Assembly: GCA_947172415.1 (NCBI GenBank)
Contig: OX359196.1
Location: 4,404,501-4,468,500 of the forward strand
Reading direction: 5' to 3'
Length of the DNA stretch: 64,000 nucleotides
Source: Chondrosia reniformis
Taxonomy: Eukaryota > Porifera > Demospongiae > Chondrillida > Chondrillidae
The position numbers and the translations under genes were made by a program. Positions 21,946 to 33,400 of this stretch are shown one piece after another. The notes under the pieces were generated by a model. It had not been told where the DNA came from and did not search any database. It saw nothing but the letters and a program-made list of their open reading frames with translations. Within the stretch, counting starts at the first letter, position 1, and every line of letters begins with the position of its first letter.

Positions 21946-24900
21946 TTATAAAAATTCATGACTTTGAAGATAATCAAGAACTGCTGGAGTACTTGGCAAA
22001 GAGTTAAATGTTAAACGTTCTGGATAATGAGAAATAAGAATACAATGACAAATAGTCATCGTGTTTCACAGCCATTTTACAGATCTTACAAATATAATAG
22101 CTTACCATATTTAGGTAGTGACTGCTCCATCATATAGATCAAGTGGTGATGAAAGCAGCTGAACGGTACACCCATAGTGAGAGCTAAGTCAACCTGCAAA
22201 GACAAAGAAATTAAAATACATGCACACATATACACACATGTATATGAAAGATAAGTTTATTGGAGCTATTGGCAACAAAATTGAGCTAGATTAAACGTTT
22301 CGACCCGTAGGTCTTCATCAGCAGTTACCAATAAACTTATCTTTCATAATGAACGCAACTAAAATTACCCCCTAACACATGTATATGTATGTACGTATAT
22401 GTTTGATAAAAATGTCATATCATTGGTTAAAGATAGTCTTGAATCCAGCCCCATCATATGCGATTGCACCATAGTGACACACGCAGAGGATAGGGGCTGG
22501 ATTCGAGACTAGGTTAAAGAGGGTTACAGCAACCAATGCCTCATTTAGATGTGGTTCAACCCCTAGCCAAAGTCCCCAGCAGTGATATACATATTCTATT
22601 GATTAGTAACATTAAGAGAAGTACGACCTACAAAATGATGTGATGATGGCTTGGAAGGAAATGTGAAGATGAGTGTCCAGTCCATATTCAATGTTATAAA
22701 ACAATAGGGGATATTTTTGCATTTATGATGAAAAGGTAGGTAGGTATATATTTGAGCATCAGCAACACTTATATTCGAGAAACAGAGATTTCAACGTTTC
22801 AGCCTGTTACGTAGGTTGTTTTCAGCAATGAACGAATCTACCTTTTATATAAGTACATACCTTAGGTTGAACTTAGCTTCATAAGGTACCATCTTTATAT
22901 GGTATATTGTGCTATTCTCACTCACCCAATCCTTAATGCACTCCTTAGGTGTACTTTCACAACCAGAAAACATGGCTGGGTTCTGAAGCATTCCTCTGGC
23001 ACACATAACACCATCTACACCAGTACTGCTGTGGACTTGAGCAACATCCTTTAAATTAAATATATCACCATTGGCAATCACTGGTATGCCCACAGACTCC
23101 TTTACCTTTACACAAAGATCAGTAAAAGATTCAAATCAATCCAAGCTGTCACATGAAGGCATTACTACAAGCTGGGTGACGCAAGTGGCTACTTTACAAC
23201 AATAGCAAAACTTTAGTTGATTCATTTTGACTGATAAAACTAACCAACTTAATGGCCTCTAGTGACACTGGTTCTGTCCTCTGTTTTACTGTTCTCCCAT
23301 GCACAGTAAGCCAGGAGACACCGGCGTGTTCAGCACGCCTCACCAGTTCAACTGTCTCCCTAAGATTGCATACCAGTATACTAAAGTGATACTTTGTAAT
23401 ATATTAATGACATATCTACTAGTCTGCAGTGATACTTTGTAATATATTAATGACATATCTACTAGTCTGCAGTGATACTTTGTAATATATTAATGACATA
23501 TCATGTACTTTAGATTACTGTGTATCCTAATTTTGATGGACACAGGAAGAGAGCTCCTTCTCTTAGCTTGCTGGACCATATCAGCAAGAAGATCAACATG
23601 ATCAATCAAATGAGCGCCATACCCTTCAGCCATAGCCCACCTAAGGAATAGTCACCAGTGCTTAATAGTTCATCCAAGGTCATAACCAAACATAATCTTA
23701 TACTCACAACCATATGTACATATGCATACATGACATACGTATGTATGTAGGTAATGGCAAAACAATACAATCACTAAAACTACAGAGTCTTTTGTTATTG
23801 CTCTCCAAAATGTTATATGTACCAATTACACAGTGTGGCTTAATGATCGACACCAACTACGTACGTATGTCACTAATACGTACCTCCCTTCTAAATAGTT
23901 ATTATGGTTCAAAGGATGGCCTAGACACATATTCATCCTATAATCTTGCAGCTAATGGCCTTACATCCTTACAGCATTGCTTACCTTTGGGGACACCCAC
24001 AATTTAAGTCTACAGCATCACAATACCTGCAGAAAGGATAAAGATGGGGTTGAGCTGCTCTGTAACCTCAAAGGTAACTCTAGAGACAAGACTACGACTG
24101 TTACATAGAAGATCAAAATAAAGAAAAAGACAGACTCCCAGGATCACTGATGAAGGGTGGAATTCCCAGAAACAGCTGTCTGACCTAGTGGAGAAGAAGA
24201 TGAAAGAAGGGAAAAGAAGGAAGAAAAGACTCCTGTATCCTCATCCAAAAGCTCTCTTCAGGTTTAGTTCCCCTATAGGCTCTTTTACAGAATAGGCATA
24301 GCATGTAGGAAAATGGTATCTTAGATTTTTCATACGTACGGGGCAACCAACTCTGCGGCTGCAGCAAACTGTTCTGAGGTAGAGGCTGCCAACTGGACCA
24401 CCAGAGGTCTATCACCTAGGAGACAGAAGCAAGGCATACATTCAGCAATATTCACAAAAACATCTGAGGGCTCTTATTAAGAAGCACAATCATTTTCTAT
24501 TTTTACAATGTGTTCTGCTGCATATCACATATCCAGTTACAAACTTAAGGTATGGTGAGAGATAGGGCAAATCTAAGTAGACGATTTGAACAAACACTGC
24601 ACCTGGATGAGTTGTAAAAGCAACATCTCTTGCCTTTTTAGATCTCACAAAAGAATCTGAGACGATCATAGGAGTACAGGCCACATCACAACCATATCTA
24701 CATACGACCAGAGAGGACAGGCCACATCACAACCATATCTACATACGACCAGAGAGGACAGGCCACATCACAACCATATCTACATACGACCAGAGAGGAC
24801 AGGCCACATCACAGCCATATCTACATACGACCAGAGAGGACAGGCCACATCACAGCCATATCTACATACGACCAGAGAGGACAGGCCACATCACAACCAT

Positions 24901-27900
24901 ATCTACATACGACCAGAGAGGACAGACCACATCACAACCATATCTACATACGACCAGAGAGGACAGGCCACATCACAACCATATCTACATACGACCAGAG
25001 AGGACAGGCCACATCACAACCATATCTACATACGACCAGAGAGTACAGGCCACATCACAACCACATCTACATACGACCAGAGAGTACAGGCCACATCACA
25101 GCCATATCTACATACGACCAGAGAGGACAGGCCACATCACAACCATATCTACATACGACCAGAGAGTACAGGCCACATCACAACCATATCTACATACGAC
25201 CAGAGAGGACAGGCCACATCACAACCATATCTACATACGACCAGAGAGTACAGGCCACATCACAGCCATATCTACATACGACCAGAGAGGACAGGCCACA
25301 TCACAACCATATCTACATACGACCAGAGAGGACAGGCCACATCACAGCCATATCTACATACGACCAGAGAGGACAGGCCACATCACAACCATATCTACAT
25401 ACGACCAGAGAGTACAGGCCACATCACAGCCATATCTACATACGACCAGAGAGTACAGGCCACATCACAGCCATATCTACATACGACCAGAGAGTACAGG
25501 CCACATCACAACCATATCTACATACGACCAGAGAGTACAGGCCACATCACAGCCATATCTACATACGACCAGAGAGTACAGGCCACATCACAGCCATATC
25601 TACATACGACCAGAGAGGACAGGCCACATCACAACCATATCTACATACGACCAGAGAGGACAGGCCACATCACAACCATATCTACATACGACCAGAGAGG
25701 ACAGGCCACATCACAACCATATCTACATACGACCAGAGAGGACAGGCCACATCACAACCATATCTACATACGACCAGAGAGGACAGGCCACATCACAACC
25801 ATATCTACATATGACCAGAGAGGACAGGCCACATCACAACCACATCTACATACGACCAGAGAGGACAGGTCTCATCACAACCATATCTACATACGACCAG
25901 AGAGGACAGGCCACATCACAACCATATCTACATACGACCAGAGAGGACAGGCCACATCACAACCACATCTACATACGACCAGAGAGGACAGGTCTCATCA
26001 CAACCATATCTACATACGACCAGAGAGGACAGGTCACATCACAACCATATCTACATATGACCAGAGAGGACAGGCCACATCACAGCCATATCTACATACG
26101 ACCAGAGAGGACAGGCCACATCACAACCATATCTACATACGACCAGAGAGGACAGGCCACATCACAGCCATATCTACATACGACCAGAGAGGACAGGCCA
26201 CATCACAACCATATCTACATACGACCAGAGAGGACAGGCCACATCACAACCATATCTACATACGACCAGAGAGGACAGGCCACATCACAACCATATCTAC
26301 ATACGACCAGAGAGGACAGGTCACATCACAACCATATCTACATACGACCAGAGAGGACAGGCCACATCACAACCATATCTACATACGACCAGAGAGGACA
26401 GGTCACATCACAACCATATCTACATACGACCAGAGAGGACAGGCCACATCACAACCATATCTACATACGACCAGAGAGGACAGGTCTCATCACAACCATA
26501 TCTACATACGACCAGAGAGGACAGGCCACATCAAAACCATATCTACATACGACCAGAGAGGACAGGCCACATCACAACCATATCTACATATGACCAGAGA
26601 GGACAGGCCACATCACAGCCATATCTACATATGACCAGAGAGGACAGGCCACATCACAGCCATATCTACATACGACCAGAGAGGACAGGCCACATCACAA
26701 CCACATCTACATACGACCAGAGAGGACAGGCCACATCACAACCACATCTACATACGACCAGAGAGGACAGGCCACATCACAACCATATCTACATACGACC
26801 AGAGAAGACAGGCCACATCACAACCACATCTACATACGACCAGAGAGGACAGGCCACATCACAACCATATCTACATACGACCAGAGAGGACAGGTCTCAT
26901 CACAGCCATATCTACATACGACCAGAGAGAACAGGCCACATCACAACCATATCTACATACGACCAGAGAGGACAGGCCACATCACAACCATATCTACATA
27001 CGACCAGAGAGGACAGGTCACATCACAACCATATCTACATACGACCAGAGAGGACAGGCCACATCACAGCCATATCTACATACGACCAGAGAGGACAGGC
27101 CACATCACAGCCATATCTACATACGACCAGAGAGGACAGGCCACATCACAGCCATATCTACATACGACCAGAGAGGACAGGCCACATCACAACCATATCT
27201 ACATATGACCAGAGAGGACAGGTCTCATCACAGCCATATCTACATACGACCAGAGAGGACAGGCCACATCACAGCCATATCTACATACGACCAGAGAGGA
27301 CAGGCCACATCACAACCATATCTACATATGACCAGAGAGGACAGGTCTCATCACAGCCATATCTACATACGACCAGAGAGGACAGGCCACATCACAACCA
27401 TATCTACATACGACCAGAGAGGACAGGTCTCATCACAGCCATATCTACATACGACCAGAGAGAACAGGCCACATCACAACCATATCTACATACGACCAGA
27501 GAGGACAGGCCACATCACAACCATATCTACATACGACCAGAGAGGACAGGTCACATCACAACCATATCTACATACGACCAGAGAGGACAGGCCACATCAC
27601 AGCCATATCTACATACGACCAGAGAGGACAGGCCACATCACAGCCATATCTACATACGACCAGAGAGGACAGGCCACATCACAGCCATATCTACATACGA
27701 CCAGAGAGGACAGGCCACATCACAACCATATCTACATATGACCAGAGAGGACAGGTCTCATCACAGCCATATCTACATATGACCAGAGAGGACAGGCCAC
27801 ATCACAACCATATCTACATACGACCAGAGAGGACAGGTCTCATCACAGCCATATCTACATATGACCAGAGAGGACAGGCCACATCACAGCCATATCTACA

Positions 27901-30238
27901 TACGACCAGAGAGGACAGGCCACATCACAACCACATCTACATACGACCAGAGAGGACAGGCCACATCACAACCACATCTACATACGACCAGAGAAGACAG
28001 GCCACATCACAACCACATCTACATACGACCAGAGAGGACAGGTCTCATCACAGCCATATCTACATACGACCAGAGAGGACAGGCCACATCACAACCATAT
28101 CTACATACGACCAGAGAGGACAGGCCACATCACAACCATATCTACATACGACCAGAGAGGACAGGCCACATCACAACCATATCTACATACGACCAGAGAG
28201 TACAGGTCACATCACAACCATATCTACATACGACCAGAGAGGACAGGCCACATCACAGCCACATCTACATACGACCAGAGAGGACAGGCCACATCACAAC
28301 CATATCTACATACGACCAGAGAGGACAGGTCTCATCACAGCCATATCTACATACGACCAGAGAGAACAGGCCACATCACAACCATATCTACATACGACCA
28401 GAGAGGACAGGCCACATCACAACCATATCTACATACGACCAGAGAGGACAGGCCACATCACAACCATATCTACATACGACCAGAGAGGACAGGCCACATC
28501 ACAACCATATCTACATACGACCAGAGAGGACAGGCCACATCACAACCATATCTACATACGACCAGAGAGGACAGGCCACATCACAACCATATCTACATAT
28601 GACCAGAGAGGACAGGCCACATCACAACCATATCTACATACGACCAGAGAGGACAGGCCACATCACAGCCATATCTACATACGACCAGAGAGGACAGGCC
28701 ACATCACAGCCATATCTACATACGACCAGAGAGGACAGGCCACATCACAACCATATCTACATATGACCAGAGAGGACAGGCCACATCACAACCATATCTA
28801 CATACGACCAGAGAGGACAGGCCACGTCACAGCCATATCTACATACGACCAGAGAGGACAGGTCTCATCACAACCATATCTACATATGACCAGAGAGGAC
28901 AGGCCACATCACAACCATATCTACATATGACCAGAGAGGACAGGCCACATCACAACCATATCTACATACGACCAGAGAGGACAGGCCACATCACAACCAT
29001 ATCTACATACGACCAGAGAGGACAGGCCACATCACAACCATATCTACATACGACCAGAGAGGACAGGCCACATCACAACCATATCTACATATGACCAGAG
29101 AGGACAGGCCACATCACAACCATATCTACATACGACCAGAGAGGACAGGCCACATCACAACCATATCTACATACGACCAGAGAGGACAGACCACATCACA
29201 ACCATATCTACATACGACCAGAGAGGACAGGCCACATCACAACCACATCTACATACGACCAGAGAGGACAGGCCACATCACAGCCATATCTACATACGAC
29301 CAGTGAGGACAGGCCACATCACAACCACATCTACATACGACCAGAGAGGACAGGCCACATCACAGCCACATCTACATACGACCAGAGAGGACAGGCCACA
29401 TCACAACCATATCTACATACGACCAGAGAGGACAGGCCACATCACAGCCATATCTACATACGACCAGTGAGGACAGGCCACATCACAACCATATCTACAT
29501 ACGACCAGAGAGGACAGGCCACATCACAACCATATCTACATACGACCAGAGAGGACAGGCCACATCACAACCATATCTACATACGACCAGAGAGGACAGG
29601 TCTCATCACAACCATACAACCGGGGCTTGTGGTGACAAAGAATACGAGAACATGAAAAATCTAAGATACCATTTTCCTACATGCTATATGCCTATTCTGT
29701 AAAAAGAGCCTATAGGGGAACTAAACCTAAAGAGAGCTTTAGATGAAGATACAGTAGTCTTTTCTTCCTTCTTTTCCCTTCTTTCATCTTCTTCTCCACT
29801 GGGTCAGACAGCCGTTTCTGGGAATTCCACCCTTCATCAGTGATCCTGGGAATCTTTGTCTTTTTCTTTATCTTGATCTTCTGTGAATCCTTGGCTCATA
29901 CATAACAGAACATGTTGGGTGTTTCAGAGACTAGAAAAACTATGCCTTCATTGTCAGAATCACGTACGTATAAACTATGTACGTAAATACACTCACTTTC
30001 TGACAAGAGTTCTAAAAGCCAGTCTAAAAGGAAAATAAAATATTCGGTGACTGTTGAGTTAAACTATGACATGATGAATGTAATGTTGAACCGTTTATAG
30101 AACTGACTTGGAATATCTGACCATAGGAGCGCAAATCTTCAGGGGAACATCTTTAGGTCGTTTTCTAAAAAGTTCTTCAATACTAATAACATTTTTCTCC
30201 TCAAAGAGAGCATTCAGCATGCTAGCGAGCATGCGCAT
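21946..30238 (-). CDS. DUS4L: tRNA-dihydrouridine synthase 4-like
   Basis: Ten exons join in frame to 319 residues (human DUS4L has 317): 30108-30238, 29997-30023, 24603-24697, 24340-24415, 23985-24026, 23509-23640, 23245-23359, 22926-23105, 22106-22193, 21946-22019. Visible blocks are ICAPMVRYSK (FMN site), YGCDVACTPMIVSDSFVRSK, DLNCGCPQRWAMAEGYGAHL with the catalytic Cys in GCP, VSIKIRIH, VSWLTVHGRT, IPVIANGDIFNLKD and GVDGVMCARGMLQNPAMFSG. The enzyme reduces uridine to dihydrouridine in tRNA using FMN and NADPH. Intron 2 (24698-29996, 5.3 kb) is filled by a 41-bp minisatellite, far longer than the other introns. Start at MRMLAS was chosen by length; further in-frame Met codons lie upstream. 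Confidence 0.93.
22243..22348 (-). mobile_element. short inverted-repeat element with hammerhead-like core
   Basis: Exact 21-bp inverted arms (22243-22263 and 22328-22348, with GAAAGATAAGTTTATTGG) enclose, on the minus strand, CTGATGA (22316-22322 region), a stem of GACC/GGTC closed by a 4-base loop, then GAAA and CGTT (around 22295-22302). This fits the conserved hammerhead core with H17 = U. Inserted in the last intron of DUS4L. No coding capacity. Confidence 0.6.
22735..22850 (-). repeat. decayed relative of the hammerhead-like element
   Basis: On the minus strand it reads CTGAAAA, a stem region, then CTGAAACGTTG, and ends with a block (TGTTGCTGATGCTCAAAT) that also follows the element at 32083. 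The G at core position 8 is lost, so it would not be an active ribozyme. Lies between DUS4L exons 8 and 9. Confidence 0.5.
23386..23512. repeat. 43-bp tandem repeat, about 3 copies
   Basis: The unit starting AGTGATACTTTGTAATATAT is repeated almost without change, ending next to DUS4L exon 6 (splice donor at 23508). The donor side of the intron may have been copied along with it. Confidence 0.8.
24108..24340 (+). repeat. left inverted arm (about 230 bp) with hammerhead-like core
   Basis: Near-identical in reverse complement to 29640-29895. It contains CACTGATGAAGGGTGGAATT (core CTGATGA at 24147-24153), GAAAC at 24169-24173, then the palindrome CAGCTG followed by TC, and a tail with GGTTTAGTTCCCCTATAGGC. 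It ends directly at the splice donor of DUS4L exon 4, so the arm fills part of intron 4. Other, more decayed copies of the same family occur elsewhere in the window. Confidence 0.85.
24674..29616. repeat. 41-bp minisatellite, about 120 copies
   Basis: Spacing between equivalent bases is 41 throughout (for example GACCAGAGAGGACAGG at 24707 and 24748). Length divided by period gives about 120 units. Variant positions are GGCCACATC/GGTCTCATC, CACAACC/CACAGCC, GAGGACAGG/GAGTACAGG, and CATACGACC/CATATGACC. Because 41 is not a multiple of three, all three frames of the plus strand stay open for hundreds of codons and read the same 41-residue cycle; these are not genes. Read on the minus strand, each unit contains the DUS4L exon 3 acceptor (TATGTAG then ATATGGTTGTGATGTGGCC) and the first 24 exonic bases. 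The array fills most of intron 2 of DUS4L. Confidence 0.97.
29640..29895 (-). repeat. right inverted arm with hammerhead-like core
   Basis: Reverse complement of the left arm at 24108-24340, with only scattered differences. On the minus strand CTGATGA lies at 29834-29840 and GAAAC at 29814-29818, followed by CGGCTG and TC; the left arm has the perfect palindrome CAGCTG here. It starts about 25 bp from the end of the minisatellite. Confidence 0.85.
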
Positions 30239-30404
30239 GAATAAATTTTGAATTTCCCGCAGTGGATATGAGTTTACACGTGGGTAAAGAAAATGGTGAA
30301 GACCTTTATGAGTAAGTAAGCGTATCAACGTGACTTGTGTGAGCTTAACATACTGTTTTAAATATTTATTTACAGGAAAAAAGAGTAAGCGACTTCCCGC
30401 AAAA
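30239..30404. promoter_or_regulatory. shared promoter region DUS4L / GNL3-type gene
   Basis: The two divergent start codons are 166 bp apart. The assignment assumes the DUS4L start at 30238; upstream in-frame Met codons would make the interval even shorter. Confidence 0.5.
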
Positions 30405-33400
30405 ATGAAGTACAAAATTGACAAAAAGGTGAGATGCAGTGCGTCTCGGTGAGTCAGTTTTGCGAGGTGACACTCTGTGCTAGTAGCCTTGTGCTAAGAT
30501 CTGGTTCAATTTTTATCCTCGCCACAAAACGGTCGACCTATTATACTTTAGAGAGTAACTCCAAATATGAGCTATTACTGTATAGTAGGTAAAACACTCT
30601 TGTATCACGTGTGTTTCATTGTAACTAGTACTAGAGTGTGTTCAGAGTGTAATAGAAGAAATTTTAAATTCCATCTCTGTTATGTTGATGTGTAGGTACG
30701 AGAGCACAAACGGAAGCTTCGCAGGAGCCAAAAGAATGGAGGAAAATCTAGTAAGCTATTGGTAAGGACTATTGTGATACAGTATATTAATGGTTCACTG
30801 ATTTATTAGAGTTGAAAAAGGATCCAGGGATACCCAACCTTTACCCTTTTAAAGAGCACCTTTTGAAACAAATTGAAGAAAAAAGAGAAAATGTTTGTCC
30901 AGCGTCAAATGTTTTTATTTGAAGCTGAACACTTCCATTGTGTTTCTTTAGGATGCAGCACAGAAGCAAAGAGACAAAGAAAGGAGAAAGAGAGAAAAGA
31001 AGTTACAAAGCCTGCAGGGTATCCAACAAGCTGCTCTAAAAAGTAGCAAATTGTTTGATAAAAAGGTGTGAAATCATGATATGCAGTAATAGTTGGAACT
31101 ATACCATATAGCAGTAAATTTTCAAGGGTGAAAACCTCTTCCATAGTTTTGAAGTTTATTTGTGAAGGCTACACACGAAATTTGTTCTCCTTGAAAATTT
31201 CCTACAATTATATTTGTGAAATGATTGCATTATACACCTGTACATAAGTACAATACGTAAGTATGTATGTAGCTTTGGAATTCATGTCAGTGAAACTATT
31301 AATATGTACGTACCTACTTAGCAAGAATGGGAAGAAGCAGCTGATGAAATGAAGGATCTAGGACTTGATAAAGGTATTGCAGTCAATAGATGTGTATATT
31401 GTTTATTTATTAATTAGTAACTCAATATACGTACGTATATGCCCACTTAGATTCCAGTAGAAAGGCATATTATCGAGAATTTAAAAAAGTTGTGGATTTG
31501 TCAGATGTTATTTTGGAAGTTTTAGATGCAAGGGATCCCCTGGGTTGTCGCTGTCCTCAGGTAAGTACGTAAATTGGTCAGGTACCTCTGCTAGTGCTGG
31601 GTAATACAATTGATACCCATTGACTATTCAATTTCAAATCCCACTAATGCAGTACATCAGGTATACGTATATCATGTTGCTTACCTAAGATCTCATGATA
31701 TTCAGAAACAGTCCATATCGCCTTATAGCATAGTCTCACTACATGTTGTAGACCACCAGTTACTGTATAGAATGTATTCAATTTGGAAGCCATGTTTTTT
31801 ATTTGGTACGTATGTACTTATAATGGTTTAGTTGGAGCAGGCTGTTATCAGTAGTGGCGCCAATAAAAAGCTTGTATTAGTCATCAATAAAATTGGTAAG
31901 TAAAGTTTCTATACATACGTACGTACATATTATGCCTATACGTAAGCTGCTATATACGTATGTATGTATGTACATATACATACGTATATATTATTCACTG
32001 CCCAAAAAACATTACATCATAACTCATCACATGTCACCTTCTTCTATTTAAACTGGTTGTATGCCTTCCTCCTCATTTATTACTGAAGAAGACCTACGGG
32101 TCGAAACGTCCTAATACTTTGATTAATAATAAGTGTCGCTGATGCTCAAATTGTAACCAATTCGTATATTTAGGACTATAATACATATACATGTATAGTG
32201 TAAAGGGACGTACTTATTTGCTACTACGTATTTGGCAGACCTGGTTCCTAGATCTAATGTGGAAGACTGGTTGAAGTATCTTCGCGATGAGTTTCCTGCC
32301 ATTCCCTTCAAAGCAAGTACTCAGGCACAGAAGCAACATCTGGTAAGTTGCATTTTTATATACGTACGTACATACATTTAGAATACATTGAGCCCTCATA
32401 ATACCTTCCTTTGCACCAAGCTGAATTGTGAACTCTGTATGCCAGTCCCTCCTAAATTTGTACAGAAATAATAGTGTTTTCTTGTTTATGTTAGTTACGT
32501 ATATGTATGTACATGTGTTAATAGGTGCAAGTGAATGGCATTTTAAATCGTCCTTGTCTGTTGAGCACTCAAACAATACACTACAGTAGACATACGTACC
32601 TACATACGTATAATGTTCTTGGCTAACAATTTGTGAGATTCTTTTGTGATTTGTTGTTCATTCTGTAGTCAAGGAAGAAGCTCCCTGCATCTTCCTCAAA
32701 GGATATTGGCAATACAGCTGTTTGTATAGGAGCTGAAATACTGATGAACGTTCTCGGAAATTACTGCAGAAACACTGGTGTGAAGACGTCCATCACAGTA
32801 GGAATCGTAGGGTTGCCAAACGTTGGCAAGAGTAGCATCATAAACAGCTTAAAGCGCTCAAAGGCCTGCCAGGTTGGTGCTATTCCTGGAGTGACTAAAG
32901 CCATGCAAGAAATACAGCTGGATAAGCACATAAAGCTCTTGGATTCACCTGGTATTGTCATGGCAACAAGTAGCCACCACTCGGCAGTTTTAAGGAATAG
33001 TTTGAAAGTACGTACATAACCCATTGTATCCTTTTATATGTGCATATGTATGCATGCAAGTGCACCTTCTAATCTGTTGTTGGGGCCTCTTTACCTATGT
33101 ATGTATATTGTTTTTAGAAATTGTTTTTTGTTGTTTGTTCCCACTTTTCAGTTTCTAAACTGAATTTTTTTCACTGATTAGAATCTTGCTAATCAAAGAT
33201 TTAAGCCCTTATATGTACTTACATGTATATTGTTGTTATAATTAACAATATAAATACATATATACGTACGTCATATACGTACGTAGGCTACACATGCATG
33301 CATGACTAAATAGATGGAAATGACATCAAAGTATGTTTGAATGTGTCTCAGGTAGATAGTCTTTCAGATGTGGTAACTCCTGTGGAAACCATATTGCAGA

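What the first reader, a model, noticed from the sequence alone, without database searches (positions are those of the whole stretch)
24674..29616. A minisatellite made from a gene's own splice acceptor: about 120 copies of the DUS4L exon 3 start
Seen directly: on the minus strand each 41-bp unit reads through a pyrimidine-rich stretch, TATGTAG and then ATATGGTTGTGATGTGGCC, which is exactly the acceptor and first bases of DUS4L exon 3 (24697 downward). The real exon is the terminal unit of the array. The intron therefore offers about 120 copies of the same 3' splice site, all upstream of the true one and each reading into a decoy exon start. Either the last site is chosen by some positional rule, or the gene is mis-spliced or reduced in output. 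I know of no comparable described case.
Basis: partly seen in the sequence, partly recalled or inferred. Interest (0 to 1): 0.88.

Follow-up and report, generated by a model that had tools for sequence, protein, structure and literature searches.

The report
Repeat array copying a splice site
In a sponge gene, a short stretch covering the boundary where an exon begins has been copied about 120 times in a row, so the cell must pick the one correct cutting point among 119 look-alikes; the kind of structure is already known from the lancelet, but this copy number is extreme and makes a clean natural test of how splicing chooses its site.

Summary
In DUS4L of what is very likely the sponge Chondrosia reniformis, 120 acceptors (TATGTAG|A) lie exactly 41 nt apart; the last is the true start of coding exon 3. 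Each of the 119 others, if used, brings a stop after 71-79 residues. No other exon 3 and no second copy of the gene were found, apart from a distant paralog.

The claim of no comparable case is wrong. Tandem repeats spanning intron-exon boundaries are known in lancelet as 'mirages', one made of intron end plus exon start, with RT-PCR suggesting regular splicing (PMC3087553; PMC3902484). Repeated donor sites are known in human IFI6 and CBS.

New here: a sponge, the copy number, and recurrence. Twenty 10-kb samples of the same genome held junction-spanning arrays in MRE11 (3 acceptors) and POLG (6), plus one probable; random placement predicts about 3.3.

Best reading: an accidental mirage, tolerated because cross-exon pairing favours the last acceptor. 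Splice usage is inferred, not shown, and MRE11's short intron (169 nt) fits that rule poorly.

The parts
24698..29616 (-). decoy part of the 41-bp minisatellite in DUS4L intron 2: 119 complete decoy acceptors plus a left partial unit (the last 41-nt unit ends in the true acceptor)
24603..24697 (-). true coding exon 3 (95 nt); its first 22 nt equal the array consensus and its acceptor is the last of 120
29997..30023 (-). coding exon 2, a 27-nt microexon, upstream partner of the splice
30108..30238 (-). coding exon 1 (131 nt)
24698..29996 (-). intron 2, 5299 nt (the other eight introns are 84-732 nt)
21946..24415 (-). span of coding exons 4-10 of DUS4L with their introns (stop codon 21946-21948)
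29652..29885 (-). copy of a dispersed repeat in intron 2, about 35 bp upstream of the array; one arm of an inverted pair
24104..24333 (+). second copy of the same repeat in intron 4, inverted, 220 of 235 positions identical, abutting the exon 4 donor GTACGT

Best explanation
This is a junction-spanning minisatellite (a 'mirage') that arose by duplication across the exon 3 acceptor and grew by slippage or unequal exchange; it has no function of its own. Shown: 120 acceptors, 105 of the 119 decoys scoring the same as the true one; every decoy leads to an early stop; only the last gives DUS4L; no other exon 3 was found; one 10-unit block is duplicated inside the array; similar arrays occur in MRE11 and POLG of the same genome. 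Inferred: each unit is a complete but weak 3' splice site (an imperfect branch-point-like GTGAT 30 nt upstream of the exon, a pyrimidine stretch, TAG). DUS4L keeps working because the last acceptor is the one closest across the exon to the exon 3 donor (95 nt away), and the long upstream and short downstream introns (5299 and 187 nt) favour cross-exon pairing. Transcripts that use a decoy are lost as stop-containing mRNA.
For: Array geometry. Decoy outcome: 0 of 119 give full length; stops after 71, 76 or 79 residues, at least 696 nt before the last exon junction. No other exon 3 and a single DUS4L in this assembly (the C4 match is a 37-49% identical paralog). No unit between the first and the last has lost TATGTAG (all 119 intervals are 41 nt; 119 of 119), so decoys have not been purged by mutation. 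Block of 10 units repeated 13 units apart. Same kind of array in MRE11 (2 of 2 decoys give stops) and POLG (5 of 5, reading the exon from its first base). Lancelet mirages: RT-PCR suggests regular splicing (PMC3087553, section 16 read; PMC3902484, one passage). In human data, competing 3' sites in the class with a long upstream and short downstream intron mimic exon definition, which favours the site closest across the exon (PMC9225289: abstract, sections 5 and 9, passages; its length cut-off I did not see).
Against: No RNA evidence was reachable. The human rule is a statistical bias between two sites, not a rule for 120; over all its 3' events at least 20 nt apart the upstream site is preferred, and long introns on both sides only reduce that. 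By a recalled matrix the true acceptor is weak (3.9 bits; the other eight DUS4L acceptors 2.3-11.9; 16% of 3610 AGs on the minus strand of the window outside the array score as well), exon 3's own CAG at base 41 scores higher (4.6), stronger AGs lie upstream in intron 2 (29696, 8.6), and the unit has no yTnAy branch motif. MRE11's three acceptors sit in a 169-nt intron, where the intron-centred rule would favour a decoy. RNA fold gives no clear help: the true AG ranks 109th of 120 in openness in one setting and 78th in the other.
Confidence: 0.75

Rival explanations
1. The array lowers DUS4L output: a sizeable share of transcripts uses decoy acceptors and is destroyed, whether or not copy number matters.
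For: 119 of 119 decoys give an early stop and keep the acceptor. The true acceptor has no visible advantage in its own sequence.
Against: No sign of regulation. Lancelet mirages reportedly splice normally. Similar arrays in MRE11 and POLG occur at about the chance rate.
Confidence: 0.13
2. Units act as in-frame 33-nt microexons: acceptor of one unit, GTATGT donor 33 nt later, then a further acceptor, adding 11 residues (YGCDVACPLWS-like) per unit.
For: GTATGT lies 33 nt after the acceptor in 105 of 119 units; one 33-nt insert keeps the frame open for 119 of 119 units, counting the 14 without that donor.
Against: The donor is weak (2.1 bits; 24% of 3626 GTs score as well). None of the 11 aligned homologs carries such an insert. 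33 being a multiple of 3 has a one-in-three chance.
Confidence: 0.05
3. The gene is damaged: this allele is mis-spliced and close to a null, carried by one haplotype.
For: 120-fold competition; weak true acceptor.
Against: Open reading frame and all ten exons intact; no decay seen.
Confidence: 0.07

Closest known systems
Lancelet (amphioxus) 'mirages': Adh3, globin BflGb6/BflGb9, TnC, PGBD5
   Same: Minisatellite-like tandem repeats that span an intron-exon boundary; BflGb6 duplicates the 3' end of an intron plus the 5' part of exon 2, the same geometry as here; many units carry splice signals; units show concerted turnover (PMC3087553 section 16; PMC3902484 passage).
   Different: Sponge rather than lancelet; 120 acceptors against 6 and 3 repeat units in the two BflGb6 haplotypes; 41-bp unit (150-160 bp in BflGb6, 10-72 bp in Adh3); splicing not tested here. 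Copy numbers of the Adh3 mirages were not seen.
Human IFI6 (6-16) minisatellite
   Same: A minisatellite that repeats a splice site; further units are used as donors (a statement and a reference title in PMC4526556).
   Different: Repeats the donor, not the acceptor; use of alternative units is reported there.
Human CBS 31-bp VNTR c.1444_1467+7(16_21)
   Same: Tandem repeat whose coordinates run across an exon-intron junction, polymorphic in number (passages of PMC2630376).
   Different: Donor side, 16-21 copies.
MRE11 and POLG arrays in the same genome
   Same: Units of acceptor plus the first 8 or 5 exon bases; true site is the last; each decoy gives a stop.
   Different: 3 and 6 acceptors only.

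Membership tests
Mirage (junction-spanning minisatellite) | tandem repeats that span an intron-exon boundary | tested here: met
   119 units plus true exon, unit = 22 nt identical to the exon start + 19 nt intron end
Mirage (junction-spanning minisatellite) | units carry splice signals that could act as cryptic sites | tested here: met
   TATGTAG at all 119 intervals of 41 nt
Mirage (junction-spanning minisatellite) | concerted turnover of units inside the cluster | tested here: met
   22 unit types, mean 1.6 differences per pair, one 10-unit block duplicated
Mirage (junction-spanning minisatellite) | length instability between haplotypes | not testable with these tools
Mirage (junction-spanning minisatellite) | regular splicing of the host gene despite the repeats | not testable with these tools
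Poison exon / splicing coupled to mRNA decay | alternative use introduces a premature stop | tested here: met
   119 of 119 decoys
Poison exon / splicing coupled to mRNA decay | alternative use is regulated or conserved | not tested
   no RNA data and no related genome
Microexon / recursive splice-site array | unit bounded by usable acceptor and donor | tested here: inconclusive
   GTATGT in 105 of 119 units, but weak with C at -1

The most novel reading that the evidence does not exclude
The array is a length-dependent splicing device: decoys compete measurably with the true acceptor, or enter as in-frame 33-nt microexons, so that repeat number sets DUS4L dose or adds a variable 11-residue repeat to the enzyme.
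Probability: 0.1. Interest if true: 0.8.

Novelty: new member of a known kind. Interest (0 to 1): 0.5.

Why it matters
It is a natural experiment on splice-site choice: 120 near-identical 3' splice sites in one intron, of which exactly one gives a protein. Existing short-read RNA can tell the true join from decoy joins, because the true exon and the consensus decoy differ from base 23. It also extends boundary-spanning minisatellites from lancelet to a sponge and suggests they arise wherever minisatellites are dense and introns frequent, at roughly the chance rate (small sample). That bears on how intron ends move and new introns form.

Tried and rejected
RNA structure as the positional rule: of eight rank measures (two settings), the true acceptor ranks 109, 54, 75, 105 and 78, 99, 45, 95 of 120 in openness. 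It is slightly open around the AG in one setting but within the spread of the decoys. Not adopted.

Origin from the first 41 nt of exon 3 alone (its bases 40-41 also end in AG): the 19-nt remainder aligns with shuffle P = 0.045 for the consensus and 0.006 for the A23 variant. The 10 A23 units share CCTGTACTC with the exon, which a plain duplication across the junction also explains. Left undecided. The left edge begins with an exon-like partial unit, which plain duplication does not explain without later loss.

Enrichment of arrays at splice junctions: 45 sampled arrays give 3.3 expected with an edge 1-40 nt inside an exon, against 3 spanning (one only probable) plus one reaching 1 nt across a donor. 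No excess claimed. With a 15-nt limit, chosen afterwards, 1.24 are expected, P = 0.037 for 4. The scan (59 arrays, 9 of them from the window, 22 rows) required acceptor score 5 or donor score 6 and an open frame of 75 nt, so it misses weak sites; DUS4L itself (3.9) is not among its rows. Of the 22 rows, 3 are backed by protein homology (MRE11 acceptor and donor, POLG), 1 is probable (L015: no Pfam or PDB match), and 18 are unresolved (those of L020 look like coding collagen repeats to me). Of 143 open frames flanking arrays, 18 were tested with Pfam, with two further stretches (one of them joined exons). Loci L026 and L034 were dropped before this count because they are mostly satellite; with them the sample has 81 arrays and 5.9 expected. 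The sample covers contigs C1-C5 only.

Higher purging of the acceptor part: variants are fewer in the intron part (31 of 2261 positions) than in the exon part (83 of 2618), but copies are not independent, so nothing is claimed.

Splice scores use a human-like matrix recalled from memory and are only a rough yardstick.

Full report
Source. The window lies in a genome of 117,379,552 bases in 15 contigs. The genome paper of the kidney sponge Chondrosia reniformis gives 117.37 Mb in 14 chromosomes plus a mitochondrial genome, HiFi reads at about 70-fold, an alternate haplotype and one RNA-seq run (PMC12181767, abstract and passages). I take the window to be that species; this rests on size and contig number.

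Gene. On the minus strand ten coding exons give a clean 319-aa protein, Pfam Dus E = 4e-71. Named homologs among the 120 listed of 1516 hits are mostly tRNA-dihydrouridine(20a/20b) synthases, including one from the sponge Dysidea avara. Eleven of those 120 were aligned; ten run unbroken across the exon 2/3 join (R-K/R then Y-x-C-D). The eleventh (P0002) lacks exactly the nine residues of exon 2, a 27-nt microexon. In the whole assembly the protein matches only this gene, exon by exon, and a 37-49% identical paralog on contig C4; on this contig residues 50-86 are matched once, at the terminal unit. So no alternative exon 3 was found.

Array. Intron 2 is 5299 nt long; the other eight introns are 84-732 nt. 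It holds 119 decoy acceptors followed by the true one; all 119 spacings are exactly 41 nt. Variation is confined to 11 columns; 47 of 119 units equal the consensus, and there are 22 unit types. A block of ten units is repeated 13 units further on, a sign of turnover by slippage or unequal exchange. No unit has lost TATGTAG. The unit is found nowhere else in the genome at up to 3 mismatches over 32 bases: 120 hits genome-wide and 120 in the window.

Consequence of decoys. Simulated use of each decoy acceptor, reading on into exon 3, gives a stop after 71, 76 or 79 residues (6, 1 and 112 decoys) whatever the frame shift; only the last acceptor gives the full protein. The stops lie at least 696 nt before the last exon junction, so nonsense-mediated decay is expected but inferred. 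Each unit also carries GTATGT 33 nt after its acceptor (105 of 119), so a 33-nt in-frame microexon is possible on paper, with a weak donor.

How the true site may win. By a recalled matrix 105 of 119 decoys score the same as the true acceptor (3.9 bits) and 14 slightly less (3.2); exon 3's own CAG at base 41 scores 4.6, and an AG in the upstream repeat 8.6. So sequence strength does not pick the true site. Each unit has a branch-like GTGAT 30 nt upstream of the exon, though no yTnAy match, a pyrimidine stretch, and a single AG (two in 12 units). Scanning takes the first AG after a branch point (PMC1431707, passages). But sites more than 12-20 nt apart are typically chosen in first recognition with separate branch points (PMC9225289 section 9), so each unit may carry its own. 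In the same human study equal competing 3' sites follow the shortest distance across the intron when introns are short; with long introns on both sides that preference is reduced, and the long-upstream, short-downstream class mimics exon definition. DUS4L exon 3 has that layout (5299 nt upstream, 187 nt downstream). The array may thus help its own tolerance by lengthening the intron. This is inference from human data. MRE11 argues against a universal form: its three acceptors lie in a 169-nt intron. Local RNA folding does not clearly single out the true site.

Not unique in this genome. In 20 ten-kilobase stretches (200,000 bases) plus the window, TRF and a scan for repeated splice signals led to MRE11 in L019. 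There an array (period 44; acceptor spacings 37 and 44) repeats CACAG|GCATATAG, the true start of the exon KHIALLHVKG, and the joined exons align with solved MRE11/Rad32 chains with no gap at the join. The same gene has ten GGTTA donor-like copies 20 nt apart, beginning at the true donor of an earlier exon. In POLG (L029), six acceptors 31 nt apart end at the true exon NGPKFNVGNPLAKDF, which aligns with solved POLG chains. Both MRE11 decoys and all five POLG decoys give stops. A third, L015, is probable but without a homolog. The DUS4L array is the largest of the 90 arrays with period 14-200 and at least 80% matches: the next highest has 50.8 copies. Degenerate 13-bp satellites in L026 have more copies. 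[quoted passage not shown] The recurrence is therefore statistically unremarkable, and it hints that such arrays are not strongly purged.

What is known. Lancelet mirages are the same structure, down to intron end plus 5' part of exon 2 in BflGb6, with Adh3 data and globin RT-PCR pointing to regular splicing (PMC3087553, section 16 read in full) and further cases in TnC and PGBD5 (PMC3902484, one passage). The primary Adh paper was not held. Donor-side cases are IFI6 (PMC4526556 passages) and CBS (PMC2630376 passages). Four searches (9, 8, 3 and 0 papers) listed no sponge case by title or abstract start; most subscription papers are not held.

Verdict. Observation confirmed; claim of no precedent rejected. 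The array is a new, extreme member of a known kind, most likely an accident that splicing tolerates. Its worth is as a natural test of splice-site choice that existing RNA data can settle.

Noticed in passing
window 29652-29885 (-) and 24104-24333 (+): Two copies of a dispersed repeat lie inverted around the array, exon 3 and exon 4 (94% identical, predicted duplex -398.6 kcal/mol). Exons 3+4 total 171 nt, so skipping both keeps the frame; such a pair could favour skipping or circular RNA.
   Followed up: partly
window 29640-29890 and G000 copies: The dispersed repeat has at least 40 near-identical copies including this one (40 of 2447 first-look candidates were scored); two pairs lie exactly 3501 bp apart on one strand (C11, C1), as long terminal repeats would. 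Observed only.
   Followed up: no
L019 1637-1718 and 998-1178: MRE11 has two boundary arrays: three acceptors in a 169-nt intron and ten donor-like copies starting at the true donor of an earlier exon.
   Followed up: yes
L029 582-737 (-): POLG has six acceptors 31 nt apart; the last begins the exon NGPKFNVGNPLAKDF, and all five decoys give stops.
   Followed up: yes
L015 2534-2602: Probable further case: CTTTGTAG|TTAATTATGTAAT once upstream of CTTTGCAG|TTAATTATGTAATGCC; the exon has no Pfam or PDB match.
   Followed up: partly
window 23385-23502: A 43-bp tandem repeat (2.7 copies) fills most of the 149-nt DUS4L intron 6, starting a few bases after the exon 6 donor.
   Followed up: no
protein P0002: A JGI DUS4 protein (67% identical) lacks exactly the nine residues of the 27-nt microexon 2, by skipping or by gene-calling error.
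   Followed up: no
window about 30250-31000 (+): A second gene seems to start head-to-head with DUS4L; read by eye it resembles the lysine-rich start of GNL3 (nucleostemin), from recall, not tested.
   Followed up: no
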